Shown: positions 27,639-46,545 of the stretch, piece by piece
Numbering within the stretch: the first letter of the stretch is position 1
Layout: every line of letters starts with the position of its first letter
Assembly: GCA_026710655.1 (NCBI GenBank)
Contig: JAPOQN010000013.1
Location: forward strand, 1-64,000
Direction of reading: 5' to 3'
Origin: Chloroflexota bacterium
GTDB taxonomy: Bacteria; Chloroflexota; Dehalococcoidia; Tepidiformales; Tepidiformaceae
DNA length: 64,000 nucleotides
Program-made: the position numbers and the translations under genes
The notes under the pieces: model-generated
What the model saw: the letters and a program-made list of their open reading frames with translations, nothing else
Told to the model about the DNA's origin: nothing
The model's database searches: none

Positions 27639-28919
27639 CTAGCGGTCCGGGCCCTCCAGGTAGTCGTCGATCACCTTGTGCATGTGGCGGATACGGCGCT
27701 CGCGGTAGTTGATCAGCAACCCCTTGAACGAACGCGACTGCATCCCCTTCTGCACGCGCGGAAGGTTGTACGAGTCCTGGTCGAGCCCCAGCCCGAGCGA
27801 GACCTCGCCGTGCTTGTGGGTCGAGTGCACCGGCCGCGGCGGCGGGTCCGAACCCTCAGGGATGCGGATGAAGTTCTGCAGGTCGTAGTACATCTTGTTC
27901 GGGTCGGTCGCGTGCGGCCGCTGCCGGAACAACATCACGCCCGAGTGGTGCGTGTTCAGCGTGATGTTCGGGAAGATGTAGTAGTGGTAGTCGTCCGATA
28001 GCTGGTCATCGTTCAGGTCCGAGAGGTCGATGCCGTGCTCGGCGCCGTACTTCTTCACCGAAGCCTGGATGGCCGGACGTACGTCCGCGGGGCCGCCCTC
28101 GAACGTCTCCGGGTCGACCCCCGCGGCGCTCAGCATCTCCCTGAGCGCGCGTGTCAGGTCTTCCTGGTTCGGGTAGCGCGGGCTCAACAGCCCGAAGGGC
28201 ACGAGATAACGGTTATGCCGCTCGTAGAGGTCGATCTGCACGTGGATGTCGTCGATCGACTCCAGGATCTGCGGGTGGATGCCCTGTACGTGGTAGACCT
28301 CGTTGAAGGCGTCCACCGAGGTCTTCCAGTTGCAGTCCCAGAGGATCGTCTGGTCCGACACCAGGTACTGCTGGTCAAAGTGGTACGGGTCCAGGTGCTC
28401 CGGAATCTCGCCCAGGAACTCCATCAGGGGCTCGGCCTCGGGGTTCATGTTGAACCAGACGAAGCCGCCCCACGTATCGCAGGGCACCTCGGTGAGGGCC
28501 GTCTCCTGGGGGACGCCCTGGGTGAACGTGTCCTCATCCGGCACGAACTTCTTCGAACCATCGAGGTTGAACTCGAAGAAGTGATACGCGCACTGGAAGC
28601 TCTCCGCGTGCCCCATGCCGGCGTTGCGGATCTGGTTCCCGCGGTGCGGGCAGACGTTGTAGAAGGCGCGGACCTTGTCCTCCGCCTCGCGCACGATCAG
28701 GAAGGACTCGGGGCCCAGCTCCGTCGTGAAGTAATCACCGACGTTGGGGATGTCGGACTCGCGGCCGGCGACGTTCCAGACCTTCGTCCACATGCGCTCC
28801 CACTCGAGCTCCATGAACTCCTTCGAGATGTACCGTTCCTTGGGGATGAGGTCGGTCCCGAGGACTGGCTCGGGCGCCTTTGTGGTTGGCGTTTGGCGGG
28901 CGACGGACTGGAGGACCAT
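27639..28919 (-). CDS. Rieske non-heme iron oxygenase, alpha subunit (copy 2)
   Basis: A 426-residue paralogue of 18329-19606 with the same numbering of its cofactor ligands (CPHRGNQI near residue 90, CAYHFFEF near 110, DAFNEVYHVQGIHP near 203-216). ATG 28919 is preferred to an earlier in-frame start at 28988 because GGGAG lies 9 bases upstream and the protein then begins like its paralogue (APEP-x-x-GT-x-LIPKERY). The two differ mainly around residues 215-330, including the substrate-pocket region. Confidence 0.94.
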   Translation of the reverse strand: MVLQSVARQTPTTKAPEPVLGTDLIPKERYISKEFMELEWERMWTKVWNVAGRESDIPNVGDYFTTELGPESFLIVREAEDKVRAFYNVCPHRGNQIRNAGMGHAESFQCAYHFFEFNLDGSKKFVPDEDTFTQGVPQETALTEVPCDTWGGFVWFNMNPEAEPLMEFLGEIPEHLDPYHFDQQYLVSDQTILWDCNWKTSVDAFNEVYHVQGIHPQILESIDDIHVQIDLYERHNRYLVPFGLLSPRYPNQEDLTRALREMLSAAGVDPETFEGGPADVRPAIQASVKKYGAEHGIDLSDLNDDQLSDDYHYYIFPNITLNTHHSGVMLFRQRPHATDPNKMYYDLQNFIRIPEGSDPPPRPVHSTHKHGEVSLGLGLDQDSYNLPRVQKGMQSRSFKGLLINYRERRIRHMHKVIDDYLEGPDR

Positions 28920-38294: not shown

Positions 38295-38969
38295 GTGTAC
38301 GTCATCATCGGCGGCGGCGGCAAGGTCGGGTACTACCTCGCCCGCGAGTTGCTCGAAGGCGACCACGAGATCCTCGTGATCGAGCGCAGCGCCCCCCGTG
38401 CCGCCGAGATCAACGACCTGCTGGAAGGCACGGTCCTGCAGGGCGATGCCTGCGAGGCCGCTGTGCTCGACGGCGCCGGTATCGCTCGCGCCGACCTCGT
38501 TGCCGCCGTCACGGGCGACGACGAGGACAACCTCGTCATCTGCGAGATCGCCCGCTACCGGGGCGTGCCCCGCGTCCTCGCCCGCGTCAATAACCCCACG
38601 AACGCGCTCCTCTTCCAGAAGCGCGGCATCGAGACGACCGTCTCCGCCACGGAGGCGATCCTCGCCCAGATTGAGCAGGAGCTGCCGGTCACCTCGATGG
38701 TGCCCGTCATGCAGTTGCACCAGGGGCTGGAGCTGGTGGAGGTGCGGCTCTCGGAGACCTCGCCGGTGGTGGGCCGCACCCCCCGCGAGGTGCTGCTGCC
38801 CCCCGAGTCGCTCATCGCCCTGATCGTCGATTCCGGCGGCGTGCCCCGCGTGCCCGGCGCCGATACCACCCTCACCGTCGGCGACGCGCTCGTCGTGGTC
38901 ACGCGCGCGGAGAGCAAGGGCATGCTCCAGGAAGCCCTGATCGGGGGCGCGCATGGGTTCGACACCTGA
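38295..38969 (+). CDS. trkA: TrkA-type potassium uptake regulator with RCK-N and RCK-C domains
   Basis: A 224-residue Trk regulator. RCK-N: YVIIGGGGKVGYYLARELLE, the DLVAAVTGDDEDNLVICEIA segment; RCK-C from about residue 140 (LELVEVRLSETSPVVGRTPR). It starts GTG 38295, three bases after the previous gene. No TrkH/KtrB channel lies in the window; it must be encoded elsewhere. Confidence 0.9.
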   Translation: MYVIIGGGGKVGYYLARELLEGDHEILVIERSAPRAAEINDLLEGTVLQGDACEAAVLDGAGIARADLVAAVTGDDEDNLVICEIARYRGVPRVLARVNNPTNALLFQKRGIETTVSATEAILAQIEQELPVTSMVPVMQLHQGLELVEVRLSETSPVVGRTPREVLLPPESLIALIVDSGGVPRVPGADTTLTVGDALVVVTRAESKGMLQEALIGGAHGFDT

Positions 38970-38985
38970 GCCCGGAGGGCCCGGC

Positions 38986-39807
38986 GTGACCATCGCCTAT
39001 CTCGGCCCGCCGGGCACCTTCGGCGAGGAGGCCGCGCGCCGCTACGCCCCCGGCGCCGAGTTGCTGTCCTGCCCCACGCACGGCGCCGTCGCCCGCGCCG
39101 TCGAGTCCGGGGAGGCGGCCACGGGCGTGATGGCCATCGAGAACTCCCTCAACGGCTCCGTGGCTGAGACGCTCGACATCCTCATCCACGACACGGCCCT
39201 CAAGATCCAGGGCGAAGTGATTGTGCCCATCGTCCACAACTTCGTCGTCGCCCCCGGCACCGCCCTTGAGGACATCGAGCTCGTCTACTCCCACCCCCAG
39301 GCCCTCGGCCAGTGCCGCGCCTTCCTTGAAGGGCACTGCCCCGAGGCCCAGCGCGCGGCCGCGCTCTCCACCGCCCAGGCCGTCGAGCTTGCCGTTGGGC
39401 GCCCCGGAGCCGCCGCCATCGCCACCCTTCGCGCCGCCGAGCTCTTCGGGGCCGACGTGCTCGCCGAGGCCATCCAGGACCAGGCCAACAACGCCACCCG
39501 CTTCGTCATCATCGGGACCCACGAGCCCGAACCTTCCACCCGTGACCGCACGTCTATCGCCTTCGAGTTCGCCGGCGACCGCGCCGGTCTCCTCACGGCC
39601 GCGTTGAACGAGTTCTCCAGTCGCGCCGTCAACTGCACGAAGATGGAGAGCCGCCCCACGCGCGCGACCTTCGGCGAGTACATCTTCCTTATCGACTTCG
39701 AAGGGCACGCCCGCGACCCCGAGTGCGCCGCCGCCCTCGACGGGCTACGCTCGATGACGAGCATGCTCAAGGTATTCGGCAGCTACCCGCAGGCGGGCGA
39801 TGCCTAG
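38986..39807 (+). CDS. pheA: Prephenate dehydratase
   Basis: A 273-residue enzyme converting prephenate to phenylpyruvate in phenylalanine synthesis. Catalytic part 1-180: IAYLGPPGTFGEEAARRY, GVMAIENSLNGSVAETLD, YSHPQALGQCRAFLE and NNATRFVII (TRF motif). C-terminal ACT domain for Phe feedback: RAGLLTAALNEFSSRAVNCT, KMESRP. GTG 38986 is preferred to ATG 38953 because GGAGGG lies 6 bases upstream and it gives the family start. The end overlaps the DUF3179 gene by 8 bases. Confidence 0.95.
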   Translation: MTIAYLGPPGTFGEEAARRYAPGAELLSCPTHGAVARAVESGEAATGVMAIENSLNGSVAETLDILIHDTALKIQGEVIVPIVHNFVVAPGTALEDIELVYSHPQALGQCRAFLEGHCPEAQRAAALSTAQAVELAVGRPGAAAIATLRAAELFGADVLAEAIQDQANNATRFVIIGTHEPEPSTRDRTSIAFEFAGDRAGLLTAALNEFSSRAVNCTKMESRPTRATFGEYIFLIDFEGHARDPECAAALDGLRSMTSMLKVFGSYPQAGDA

Positions 39808-40990
39808 AACAGTTGCAGTCGCAGCCGTGGCGCTCGTGCTTGCGCTGATCGCCGTCGCCTGCGGCGGCTCCGAGCCCGAGGCGCCCCCCTCCGCGCCCGC
39901 CACCGCCACCGCAGCCACCGAAGGGCCCGCCACCCCGGAGGCGACCGCCGCCCCCACCGAGGCCTCCACCCCAGCCGCTACCCCCACCCAGCCGCCCGCC
40001 ACGACCGCCGCCGCCACCTCCCGGCAGCCGGAAGAGGAGAGCGAATTCGTGATCGTTACCCTCCTCCCCCCCGACGCCATCCCCGCCATCAGCAACCCCC
40101 GCTTCATCACCGCCGACGAGGCCGACGCCCAGCTCCGCCTGACCGACTTCGTCATCGGCGTTTCCATCGAGGGCGAGCACCGCGCCTACGGGGCCGCATT
40201 CCTCAGCGGCCACGAGATCGTGAACGACACGCTTGGAGGCCGCGCTATCGCGGTCACCTGGTGACCGCTCTGCTTTACGGGCATCGTGTATGCCCGCAAC
40301 GTCGCCGGACAGGAGCTCAACTTCGGCGTGTCGGGCAAGCTCATCATGAACGCCCTCGTCATGTTCGACCGGCAGACCGAGACCCTCTGGAGCCAGTTCC
40401 TCGGTGAGGCCGTCCAGGGGCCGCTCAAGGGCACAGCCCTGGAAATCGTGCCCGCCGTGCTCACCCGCTGGGAGAGCTGGCGCGCCCTCCACCCCGATAC
40501 GAGCGTGCTGGACCAGGGTGGCCCGGTCGTCGACCAGTACAACAGCTACTACTTCAGTCCGGGGGCGGGAGTCATCGGCGAAAGCAACCGCGACGACCGG
40601 CTCGTCGGCAAGGAGCTCGTGCACGGCGTCGTGCTCCCGCAGGGGCGCAAGGCCTACGCCCACCGCTTCCTCGCCAAGAACCCCGTCGTGAACGACCTCA
40701 TCGGCAACCAGGCCGTCTTCGTCGCCTGGGACGCCGTGGGCGCCACGGCCATCGCCTACGACCCGAACGTCGATGGGCGCCTCCTCACCTTCGAGGCGCA
40801 GGATCCGGAGGCCAGCGGCGCAGTCGTGCGCGACCTCGAGACCGGCTCCACCTGGTCCGTGCTCACGGGCGAGGCCCTCTCGGGCGAACTGGCGGGAAGC
40901 CGCCTCGACGTGCTGCCCGGGTTCGCCGTCTTCTGGTTCGCCTGGTCCGACTACTTCCCCGACACCGACATCTTCAACCCGGAGGGGTAG
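39800..40990 (+). CDS. DUF3179 lipoprotein read through an in-frame TGA: putative selenoprotein
   Basis: Read through the TGA at 40262-40264, the product has 396 residues. Lipobox ends at Cys21 (LIAVACGGS), then a Thr/Pro/Ala linker to about 75. DUF3179 domain 1 runs from about 80: DAIPAISNPRFITADEA, GHEIVNDTLGGRAIAVTW, then Sec155-Pro-Leu-Cys158, then NFGVSGKL and FDRQTETLWSQFLGEAVQGP. The family normally has C-P-L-C here, so the TGA replaces the first Cys. Both sides are in one frame with no other defect, and a SECIS-like hairpin follows. A second, degenerate DUF3179 repeat fills the C-terminus (W-D-A-V-G in place of W-U-P-L-C). It is probably a cell-surface redox protein. The alternative is a nonsense mutation or a base error. 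Confidence 0.8.
40250..40268 (+). other. Palindrome containing the in-frame TGA
   Basis: GCGGTCACC-T-GGTGACCGC is a perfect 9-bp inverted repeat in which the TGA lies in the right arm. In RNA a 7-bp stem with a 5-base loop could form. It ends 9 bases before the SECIS-like hairpin, so both could form together or in turn. It may be chance, since its sequence is also needed for the coding. Confidence 0.5.
40278..40296 (+). promoter_or_regulatory. SECIS-like hairpin after the in-frame TGA
   Basis: CGGGCAT-CGTGT-ATGCCCG forms a perfect 7-bp stem with a 5-base loop containing GU. The stem begins 13 bases and the loop about 21 bases after the TGA, within the range of bacterial SECIS elements bound by SelB. 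It lies inside the coding region, as bacterial SECIS elements do. Confidence 0.75.
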
Positions 40991-44616: not shown

Positions 44617-46545
44617 CTACGTGCCGATGACGCCCCCATCGAGCTTGCGCGTGACGATGACGCTTGGCCGGGGGAAGTCGCCGTCGGGCCAGGTGCTGGT
44701 GGGCTCATCGAGGCCGCCCCGCTCGCCCGGGTGCTGGATGGCGAGGAAGAGAGCCGTGTCGTCCGGCGTGAACTCCGGCCCCGTCACCTCGCCCCCGGGC
44801 ACGCCCGTCATGAAGCGCCGCAGGCGTCCCCGCTCCGGGCCCGCCGTGGGGATGACGTAGGTGGCGTCCGCCGCCTCCAGCGCGCGAGGCTGCCCGTCGG
44901 TCGTCACCCAGAGGTTGCCGGCGCGGTCGAAGGCGATGTTGTCGGGCGTCGCGATCGAGTCCAGTTCGCCCTGCTCGAAGCCCGCGAAGTAGGTGCCGTG
45001 CTCCTCGTTCGCGGGGTCGCCGCAGAGGATGAAGATGTCCCACGTGAACGTCGTCGCAGCCGCGTCGCCACCGTTCTCCGTGAGCTCGAGGATGTGCCCG
45101 TAGGTGTTGGGGCCGCGCGGGTTGGGGCCGTCGACCTGCTCCTCCGTGCGGCGCGTGTTGTTCGTCATGACGGCGTAGACCCGCCGGTTGACGGGGTTCA
45201 CCTCGATGTCCTCGGGGCGGTCCATTGGCGTCGCGCCCACGAGGTCGGCCGCTTCGCGCGTGAACACGCAGATATCGGCCAGGGACCAGCCCGCCAGCGG
45301 GCCGTCCGGGACGAGCGGGATCCACTCGCCTGCGCCCGAGTCGTCGAACTTCGCCACGTAGAGCGTGCCCGCTTCGAGCAGATTCAGGTTCTCCGCGCGG
45401 TTGTACGGGTTGAAAGCGTTGCGGCTGACGAACTTGTACATGTAGTCGAAGCGCTGGTCGTCACCCGAGTAGACGACGACGCGGTTGTCGTCCGAGAGCG
45501 TCGTGTTCGCGGCCTCGTGCTTGAAGCGCCCCAGCGCCGTGTGCTTGCGAGGCGTCGAGGTCGGGTCGTACGGGTCGATCTCGACGACGTAGCCGTGGCG
45601 GTTGATCTCGTTCGGCTCCTGCGCCAGGTCGAAGCGCCGCTCGAAGCGTTCCCACTTGCGGAAGCTCTCGCCGCCCGGAGCGCCGTAGCGCGCGTTGCGC
45701 GCCTGCGCTGTCTCCTCGACGGCGTCGTTGTTGGCGAAGTACTGGTGGAAGTTCTCCTCGCACGTGAGGATGGTGCCCCACGGCGTCTTGCCGCCACCGC
45801 AGTTGTTGAACATGCCGCGAATGTCCATGCCGGTCGGGTCGGCTGCGGTCTGCAGGTAGGCGCTGCCCGCCGCCGGACCGGTCGGGACGATCGGTGTCTC
45901 GCCGTGGATGCGGCGGTTGTAGTACGACTCGGGGTGGTAGTACCACGTCCCGTTGCCGCGCCGCGAGACGCGCACGACCGACATCCCGTGGTTCGCAATC
46001 TCGACCGCGACCTGCTCGGCCGTGGGGTTGTCGCTGTCGTACCCGGGGAACATGTCGCCGCCGGCCGTGTACTCGTGGTTGACGCTCAGGAGGCCGAAGC
46101 GGACCGAGCCCGGGTCGAGGGGCATGAACCCCACGTAGTCGCAGTTGAAGCCGAACTGCCTGCGGGCCGCCGCCGCCGTCTGGTTGTTCAGGTCGAAGGC
46201 GGGCGCGCCCGCCAGGACCGGGTCGCCCCAGCGGATGAGCACCTCGGCGGCGTAGCCGGAGGCGATGTTGACGGTGTCGTCGAGGTCGTGGGGGATGCTC
46301 TCGATGCCGACCGGGCCGCCGCCGCCGGCGCCGGCGTGGCCGGAGGCGCCGGCCACGTCCGCGAGCGAGGCGCCGCCGAAGAGGCGCGCGCCCAGCAGCG
46401 GGCTCGTGCTGAGCGCCACCAGGGGCGCGCCGATGGCGGCCGTCTTCAGGAGGCCGCGGCGGCTGAGGCGCCGGTTGAGGATGGAGGCGAACGGCTCGTT
46501 GCCCTCGCGGTGTGGCGCCGGCGCCTCGATGGAGTCGTTACTCAT
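44617..46545 (-). CDS. phoX: PhoX-family phosphatase, Tat-exported
   Basis: A 642-residue PhoX/DUF839 alkaline phosphatase, which releases phosphate from phosphomonoesters outside the cell with Fe and Ca cofactors. The N-terminus has a Tat signal: LSRRGLLKTAAIG (Arg29-Arg30), followed by a hydrophobic stretch. Typical segments are FNCDYVGFMPLD, LLSVNHEYTAGGDMFPGYD, FNNCGGGKTPWGTILTCEEN, EDIEVNPVNRRVYAVMTNNT and FDRAGNLWVTTDGQP. A PHO-box-like repeat array lies 95 bases upstream of the start, consistent with induction by phosphate starvation. Confidence 0.93.
   Translation of the reverse strand: MSNDSIEAPAPHREGNEPFASILNRRLSRRGLLKTAAIGAPLVALSTSPLLGARLFGGASLADVAGASGHAGAGGGGPVGIESIPHDLDDTVNIASGYAAEVLIRWGDPVLAGAPAFDLNNQTAAAARRQFGFNCDYVGFMPLDPGSVRFGLLSVNHEYTAGGDMFPGYDSDNPTAEQVAVEIANHGMSVVRVSRRGNGTWYYHPESYYNRRIHGETPIVPTGPAAGSAYLQTAADPTGMDIRGMFNNCGGGKTPWGTILTCEENFHQYFANNDAVEETAQARNARYGAPGGESFRKWERFERRFDLAQEPNEINRHGYVVEIDPYDPTSTPRKHTALGRFKHEAANTTLSDDNRVVVYSGDDQRFDYMYKFVSRNAFNPYNRAENLNLLEAGTLYVAKFDDSGAGEWIPLVPDGPLAGWSLADICVFTREAADLVGATPMDRPEDIEVNPVNRRVYAVMTNNTRRTEEQVDGPNPRGPNTYGHILELTENGGDAAATTFTWDIFILCGDPANEEHGTYFAGFEQGELDSIATPDNIAFDRAGNLWVTTDGQPRALEAADATYVIPTAGPERGRLRRFMTGVPGGEVTGPEFTPDDTALFLAIQHPGERGGLDEPTSTWPDGDFPRPSVIVTRKLDGGVIGT

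What the first reader, a model, noticed from the sequence alone, without database searches (positions are those of the whole stretch)
39800..40990. DUF3179 lipoprotein with an in-frame TGA at its C-P-L-C motif: a probable new selenoprotein
The frame from ATG 39800 meets one TGA (40262-40264) and then continues open to 40990. The residues before it (HEIVNDTLGGRAIAVTW) and after it (PLC, then NFGVSGKL) are both standard DUF3179 sequence. The family has C-P-L-C at this point, so TGA replaces exactly the first Cys, giving Sec-Pro-Leu-Cys, the layout seen in thiol-redox selenoproteins. No other lesion is seen in 1.19 kb. I do not know DUF3179 as a selenoprotein family.
Basis: partly seen in the sequence, partly recalled or inferred. 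Interest (0 to 1): 0.95.

Follow-up and report, generated by a model that had tools for sequence, protein, structure and literature searches.

The report
Selenocysteine-containing DUF3179 lipoprotein
A bacterial gene that seems to be cut short by a stop codon very probably makes a full-length protein containing the rare amino acid selenocysteine, in a protein family already listed as selenium-using but whose job is unknown.

Summary
Frame 39800-40990 is open except for one TGA (40262-40264) replacing the first Cys of the DUF3179 C-P-L-C motif. It is very probably a real selenoprotein gene. The same genome has tRNA-Sec, selA, selB and selD. Seven of 8 same-genus genomes keep the TGA at this codon. 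A 7-bp hairpin follows it (40278-40296); in homologues not chosen by DNA pattern a full stem occurs in 41 of 46 UGA forms and 1 of 35 Cys forms, with covariation. A capped scan of a genome collection found 118 UGA-type DUF3179 sites in about a dozen phyla.

A new family it is not: two reviews list DUF3179 (UxxC/T) as a selenoprotein family, citing a 2007 paper. So: a new member of a known kind.

Added here: the hairpin, repeated Sec/Cys switching (5 changes on the tree, 3 forced by well-supported branches), and an internally duplicated predicted fold with U-P-L-C in a beta-turn rather than at a thioredoxin helix, with a weak Rieske-like lead. Function is untested.

The parts
39800..40990 (+). 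DUF3179 gene, 396 codons with UGA read as Sec; N-terminal signal with candidate lipobox (..LIAVAC) and a low-complexity linker before the domain
   Evidence: translation; Pfam DUF3179 2e-84; signal and lipobox read by eye, not tested with a predictor
40262..40264 (+). in-frame TGA = Sec codon, first position of U-P-L-C
   Evidence: same codon in 7 of 8 same-genus genomes
40271..40273 (+). TGC codon of the partner Cys of U-P-L-C
   Evidence: invariant in the 45-sequence alignment A1
40278..40296 (+). candidate SECIS hairpin: arms 40278-40284 and 40290-40296 (7 bp), loop CGTGT 40285-40289, beginning after 20 nt that follow the TGA
40082..40516 (+). N-terminal half of the domain, carrying the UPLC motif
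40598..40966 (+). C-terminal half, a duplicate of the N-terminal half without U or C at the motif
38953..39807 (+). upstream neighbour: prephenate dehydratase (PheA) gene, overlapping the DUF3179 start by 8 nt; near the UGA orthologue in 5 of 7 same-genus loci

Best explanation
This is a selenoprotein gene of the known DUF3179 selenoprotein family. Shown by sequence: UGA 40262 sits at a Cys column, is followed by a hairpin whose pairs covary among relatives, and the genome has tRNA-Sec, SelA, SelB and SelD. Inferred: SelB with Sec-tRNA binds the hairpin at 40278-40296 in the mRNA and inserts selenocysteine, giving a 396-residue exported lipoprotein. Inferred further (about 0.7): the selenol of Sec155 and the thiol of Cys158 form a reversible selenenylsulfide outside the membrane and act as an oxidoreductase site, with the second half of the duplicated domain structural only. 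The substrate is not known.
For: Machinery in the same assembly: tRNA-Sec 71.1 bits and ARAGORN SeC (tca), selB 300 bits, selA 517 bits, selD 345 bits with one in-frame TGA, at GCGG-U-ASKAGP (read by eye; that this is the usual Sec/Cys position of SelD is recalled). Conserved TGA: 7 of 8 same-genus genomes, with 80-84% identity to the window domain in six and 70% in G404. Downstream selection: pN/pS 0.35-0.50 over 7 comparisons. Hairpin: in a set not chosen by DNA pattern, a full stem in 41 of 46 UGA forms and 1 of 35 Cys forms; Cys orthologues with the same residues CPLCFTGIVY have only 4 of 7 pairs (L260, L265, L275). Covariation among 83 unique UxLCxTG[IV]VY sequences: Gly wobble base against the first base of the Ala/Ser codon 59:1 versus 0:21. 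Sec/Cys switching: 5 changes at least on the tree, 3 forced by starred branches. Breadth: 118 of 120 pattern sites are DUF3179. selA is present in 26 of 26 genomes that I chose as UGA-form.
Against: No selenium incorporation has been measured. The window hairpin alone is not unusual against synonymous-codon shuffles (p = 0.11); the evidence is comparative. The Fisher test ignores relatedness. Over all 126 unique UGA sequences only 86% of cells of the 7-bp stem pair, because the 31 P[IL]CxTG[LM]VH sequences (60%) use a stem shifted by one base. L065 and L066 lack both stems, though folds them into hairpins of their own. selA is common in this phylum (322 of 400), so its presence is weak support on its own. 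The tRNA-Sec cut-off is not specific: it rings over the cut-off in 5 of 14 control genomes, and in G226 (48.9 bits), which has no selA match. Three genomes with a UGA copy have no selA match: G503 and G522 have a tRNA-Sec at 82 bits, so selA may be missing from the draft, but G568 has neither at the thresholds used (the G522 copy rests on the table alone). Redox role and export are inferred.
Confidence: 0.96

Rival explanations
1. Pseudogene or sequencing error: a Cys or Trp codon turned into a stop, with the gene decaying.
For: A single stop in one assembly would look like this, and ordinary damaged DUF3179 copies exist (L070, L071).
Against: TGA at the same codon in 7 of 8 same-genus genomes and at the same column in 118 scan sites (some of these are genomes also met in the phylum draw); downstream pN/pS 0.35-0.50; covarying hairpin.
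Confidence: 0.01
2. UGA is read here as another amino acid (for example Trp by a changed code) or by general read-through, not as Sec.
For: Read-through alone would also leave the frame open.
Against: The UGA column is Cys in homologues. The matched parts of the three other DUF3179 genes, selA and selB of the genome have no internal TGA. One same-genus orthologue ends with TGA (L235), so TGA probably is a stop there too. Sec machinery and a Sec-type selD are present.
Confidence: 0.02
3. The truncated 154-residue product is the functional one (regulatory stop), and full-length protein is made only when selenium is present.
For: UGA decoding depends on selenium in general (recalled).
Against: The truncated piece ends inside the first half of the duplicated domain and lacks the partner Cys. 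Regulation by selenium would be an addition to Sec decoding rather than a replacement of it.
Confidence: 0.01

Closest known systems
DUF3179 (PF11376) selenoprotein family, UxxC/T, listed in PMC9312934 (table row citing its ref 63) and PMC13188914 (table row citing its ref 60), both Zhang and Gladyshev 2007
   Same: Same Pfam family and UxxC layout.
   Different: Nothing in the passages I saw names this organism or phylum for DUF3179. The 2007 paper is on a deltaproteobacterial symbiont (title seen) and could not be read (not held); of the reviews I saw table rows, a few other passages and the reference entries.
Cys-form DUF3179 lipoproteins (C-P-L-C), for example the own-genome paralogue at C13:123543-124448 (L022)
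   Same: Same family and domain, C at the UGA column.
   Different: No UGA; the hairpin is not kept (1 of 35 full stems); mostly CPLCNTAIAFDR-type sequences in place of UPLCFTGIVYAR.
Thioredoxin-fold UxxC/CxxC selenoproteins
   Same: UxxC spacing.
   Different: Predicted mainly-beta duplicated fold with the motif in a beta-turn; no thioredoxin-fold match among the 50 PDB matches shown of 386 (whole model) and of 144 (N-half).
Rieske-fold domains (NirD, Rieske ferredoxins, PetC3)
   Same: They are the high-probability Foldseek matches of whole model and half model (probability up to 1.00 and 0.97; TM by target up to 0.62 and 0.63).
   Different: E-values not significant (0.04 or worse; in the whole-model list low-probability microtubule chains rank above them by E); no C-x-H / C-x-x-H ligands; the profile comparison finds nothing for the N-half and is weak for the C-half (P = 0.005).

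Membership tests
DUF3179 (PF11376) | match to the curated profile over its length | tested here: met
   283.9 bits against cut-off 27, profile 2-292 of 292
Bacterial selenoprotein | in-frame UGA at a column that is Cys in homologues | tested here: met
Bacterial selenoprotein | hairpin (SECIS) just after UGA, conserved as structure | tested here: met
   met by comparison, not for the window sequence alone (p = 0.11); binding by SelB not tested
Bacterial selenoprotein | selA, selB, selD and tRNA-Sec in the genome | tested here: met
Bacterial selenoprotein | coding constraint after the UGA | tested here: met
   pN/pS 0.35-0.50 in 7 pairs; DUF3179 match continues after the UGA
Bacterial selenoprotein | selenium in the protein | not testable with these tools
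   needs 75Se labelling or mass spectrometry
Thioredoxin-fold oxidoreductase | UxxC/CxxC at the start of a helix in a thioredoxin fold | tested here: not met
   in the predicted model U is at the end of strand 54-61 and the next element is strand 66-71 (pLDDT 96.9); no thioredoxin-fold hit among the 50 shown in each search
Rieske iron-sulfur domain | two Cys and two His cluster ligands (C-x-H, C-x-x-H) | tested here: not met
   No His among the invariant or nearly invariant columns of A1; the Rieske alignment A4 has C48, H50, C67, H70 invariant
Rieske iron-sulfur domain | Rieske fold | tested here: inconclusive
   consistent but non-significant Foldseek matches; hhalign negative or weak
Lipoprotein | signal peptide with lipobox Cys | tested here: inconclusive
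   N-terminus MPRTVAVAAVALVLALIAVAC read by eye; no predictor run

The most novel reading that the evidence does not exclude
DUF3179 is a duplicated Rieske-like domain that lost its iron-sulfur cluster and turned the beta-turn of a former ligand loop into a Sec/Cys redox site: a selenoprotein active site on a fold other than the thioredoxin fold, switched repeatedly between Sec and Cys.
Probability: 0.15. Interest if true: 0.65.

Novelty: new member of a known kind. Interest (0 to 1): 0.4.

Why it matters
The natural Sec/Cys pairs within one family, and a hairpin that is kept with UGA and lost with Cys, make it a good system for testing why Sec is kept or lost. The family has no known function (Pfam calls it a protein of unknown function), and its UxxC site appears to lie on a fold not usual for such sites.

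Tried and rejected
Conserved gene neighbourhood as a clue to function: clustering ORFs of 90 codons or more from 132 loci (117 scan loci, 14 phylum loci, the window) and looking at the 25 largest clusters gave no recurrent partner; the best real neighbour was an ABC ATPase in 12 loci, and the 49-locus cluster looks like spurious overlapping ORFs (my reading, not tested). Solved structures by sequence: nothing credible (two haemoglobin hits, E 0.52 and 0.68). NCBIfam: no hit near a cut-off; the best, E 0.034, lies on the signal and linker. Window hairpin alone against synonymous shuffles: p = 0.11. Rieske homology by profile: not supported for the N-half. A first tree needed only 2 Sec/Cys changes; adding loci raised it to 5. 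tRNA or Rfam hits inside the window: none.

Rows dropped or selected before counts: one search used 126 unique 45-mers out of 134 sites (118 scan sites and 16 from family searches). One search used unique 45-mers; its 35 'Cys' rows include 2 regex matches from L061 that do not look like DUF3179, and its regex missed four UGA rows of the UI[RKL]C type (L289, L290, L293, L295, seen). Many of its later loci were fetched because they carried a TGA, not for their hairpin. One search used 132 of 157 rows and one search used 169 of 198 after near-copies were removed. One search compared 60 codons upstream (pN/pS there is 0.38 to 0.69 by my division of the printed values) and all codons downstream. 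A1 holds the window plus 44 of the 64 diverse loci selected; A3 holds 33 of those 45 rows; the Rieske alignment A4 holds 16 of the 21 Rieske loci looked at. The pattern fixes hairpin columns at offsets 16, 18, 19, 22, 24, 25 and 28 from the TGA, so those columns are not evidence in the pattern-selected set; the wobble test uses a column that the pattern leaves free (20) and an unselected set. Some scan loci are the same genomes as in the phylum draw (L067 and L157 are identical in the tree).

Full report
Observation. The frame starting at ATG 39800 has one TGA at 40262-40264 and is otherwise open to TAG 40988-40990. The read-through protein is a full-length DUF3179 protein (PF11376, 2e-84). 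The genome has three further DUF3179 matches, none with an internal stop.

Sec machinery. The window lies in a 3.14 Mb draft genome (93% complete, 71 contigs). That genome has tRNA-Sec (71.1 bits over a cut-off of 47; ARAGORN SeC with anticodon tca), selB (300 bits), selA (517 bits) and selD (345 bits). The tRNA-Sec cut-off alone is not specific, since 5 of 14 control genomes ring over it. selD itself contains one in-frame TGA, at GCGG-U-ASKAGP (read by eye), which I recall as the usual Sec/Cys site of SelD.

Conservation of the UGA. Of 8 same-genus genomes, 7 carry an orthologue with the TGA at the same codon and the same 7-bp hairpin. Their identity to the window domain is 80-84% in six and 70% in one. 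The eighth (G407, 1.9 Mb) has no DUF3179 match. Downstream of the TGA, pN/pS is 0.35-0.50 in 7 comparisons. PheA lies in 5 of 7 of these loci (in one of the other two, L228, the match begins 253 bases from a contig end). In a draw of 400 genomes of the phylum, 81 have DUF3179; of the 18 listed '1 TGA' matches outside the own genome I fetched 15, and all have U at the first motif residue.

Breadth. Of 120 pattern sites, 118 score over 50 bits with a DUF3179 HMM built here. Most of these have long open frames on both sides, but some end early after U, for example L083, L084, L099 and L121 (31-36 residues). The 117 loci concerned carry record titles of Chloroflexota 71, Zixiibacteriota 13, Acidobacteriota 11, Fidelibacterota 5, Planctomycetota 5, Methylomirabilota 4, Calditrichota 2, and 1 each of Actinomycetota, Krumholzibacteriota, Rokuibacteriota, Tectimicrobiota, Verrucomicrobiota and GN15. 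These are mostly metagenome bins by title, so phyla with one locus, such as Actinomycetota (L086), may be misnamed bins. Some loci are genomes also met in the phylum draw.

Hairpin. In the window the TGA is followed by CGGGCAT-CGTGT-ATGCCCG (40278-40296), with 20 nt between TGA and loop, a spacing like that recalled for E. coli fdhF. On its own it does not stand out from 5000 synonymous shuffles (p = 0.11). Comparatively it does. In 126 unique UGA sequences the median z is -1.44, against -0.55 in 37 Cys sequences. Of the 126, 86% of stem cells are standard pairs in this register: 95% in the 83 UxLCxTG[IV]VY sequences and 60% in the 31 P[IL]CxTG[LM]VH sequences, which use a stem shifted by one base; the 37 Cys sequences have 40%. 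In the 83, the Gly wobble base follows the first base of the Ala/Ser codon 59:1 versus 0:21, and the Tyr wobble follows the Ile/Val first base 74:0 versus 2:7 (relatedness not corrected). In the set found by protein or family search, 41 of 46 UGA forms have a full stem in one of the two registers, against 1 of 35 Cys forms (2 of the 35 do not look like DUF3179). Among its 35 UGA rows with at least 6 of 7 pairs, six of the seven pairs show changes on both sides. The best natural control is the Cys orthologues L260, L265 and L275: they have the same residues CPLCFTGIVY but other codons and only 4 of 7 pairs. The one Cys form with a full stem, L259, falls among UGA forms in the tree (fork support 83) and may be a recent Sec-to-Cys change (inference).

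Sec/Cys switching and machinery. With more orthologues added, the tree of 123 UGA and 46 Cys rows needs at least 5 changes of state, 3 forced by starred branches; the window sits in a starred set of 37 UGA and 5 Cys rows. The tree is a quick one without bootstrap, and its root is not inferred. selA is found in 26 of 26 genomes that I chose as UGA-form and in 3 of 6 that I chose as carrying a close Cys orthologue. Three of those six (G503, G522, G568) also hold a UGA-type match and are the three without selA; G503 and G522 have a tRNA-Sec at 82 bits, G568 none at the threshold used. In the phylum draw, selA is in 322 of 400 genomes, including the own genome and the 11 other genomes with a listed '1 TGA' match, so co-occurrence is consistent but a weak test.

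Structure and mechanism. The AlphaFold2 model is confident (pLDDT 96.3; N-half alone 96.9). The domain is an internal duplication: the halves of the window protein align at 34% identity over 112 columns, and the two half-profiles at E 3.8e-35. Only the first half carries U and C in the window protein. U lies at the end of a strand and the motif forms the turn before the next strand, unlike a thioredoxin active site. Invariant residues in A1 (domain numbering) are E58, N61, U74, C77, T79, G80, V82, G98, D109, W116, G126 and G195. Foldseek finds no significant PDB match; by E-value low-probability microtubule chains come first, and the high-probability matches are Rieske-fold proteins, with E 0.04 or worse. 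Profiles do not support homology for the N-half. The most likely working, at about 0.7 for the general idea, is an exported lipoprotein whose Sec155-Cys158 pair cycles between selenol/thiol and selenenylsulfide; this step, the export and the substrate are all inferred.

Relation to what is known. Two reviews list DUF3179 as a selenoprotein family with motif UxxC/T (table rows seen), citing Zhang and Gladyshev 2007 (reference entries seen; the paper is not held). A full-text search for DUF3179 gave three papers, the third being an Idiomarina genome paper seen only in the listing; PF11376 gave one; DUF3179 with selenoprotein gave the two reviews. Of the hits of a search for selenoprotein, Chloroflexi and selenocysteine (17 papers, 15 listed) I read none beyond the listing. 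In what I saw there is no account of the hairpin, fold or phylum range of DUF3179, but the held library is partial.

Verdict. A real selenoprotein gene, by sequence evidence, in a family already listed as such; a new member of a known kind, with strong comparative support and an open question about fold and function.

Noticed in passing
L020:2404-2406, - strand (selD at G000:C8:56278-57213): selD of this genome has an in-frame TGA at GCGG-U-ASKAGP, so SelD is probably a selenoprotein too.
   Followed up: partly
window 19214-19465 and 28527-28778, - strand: At least two Rieske-domain matches in the window; the own genome has 20, same-genus genomes 13-21, and the 11 other-genus relatives searched 1-5.
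   Followed up: no
L289, L290, L293, L295: A further DUF3179 subfamily with U-I-[RKL]-C-[SH]-S-G-V-G at the same column, UGA-type.
   Followed up: partly
L281 and L282: DUF3179 genes with TGAs outside the motif as well (VL-U-VEI in L281, VG-U-LPV in L282); L281 also seems frame-shifted near its end. Sequence errors or decay are possible.
   Followed up: no
L061: Two UGA-type DUF3179 genes side by side on opposite strands.
   Followed up: no
L259: A Cys form (CPLCFTALVYAR) that keeps a full 6-bp stem in the shifted register, perhaps a recent Sec-to-Cys change.
   Followed up: partly
window 44617-46545, - strand: PhoX alkaline phosphatase (1.7e-161) a few genes downstream.
   Followed up: no
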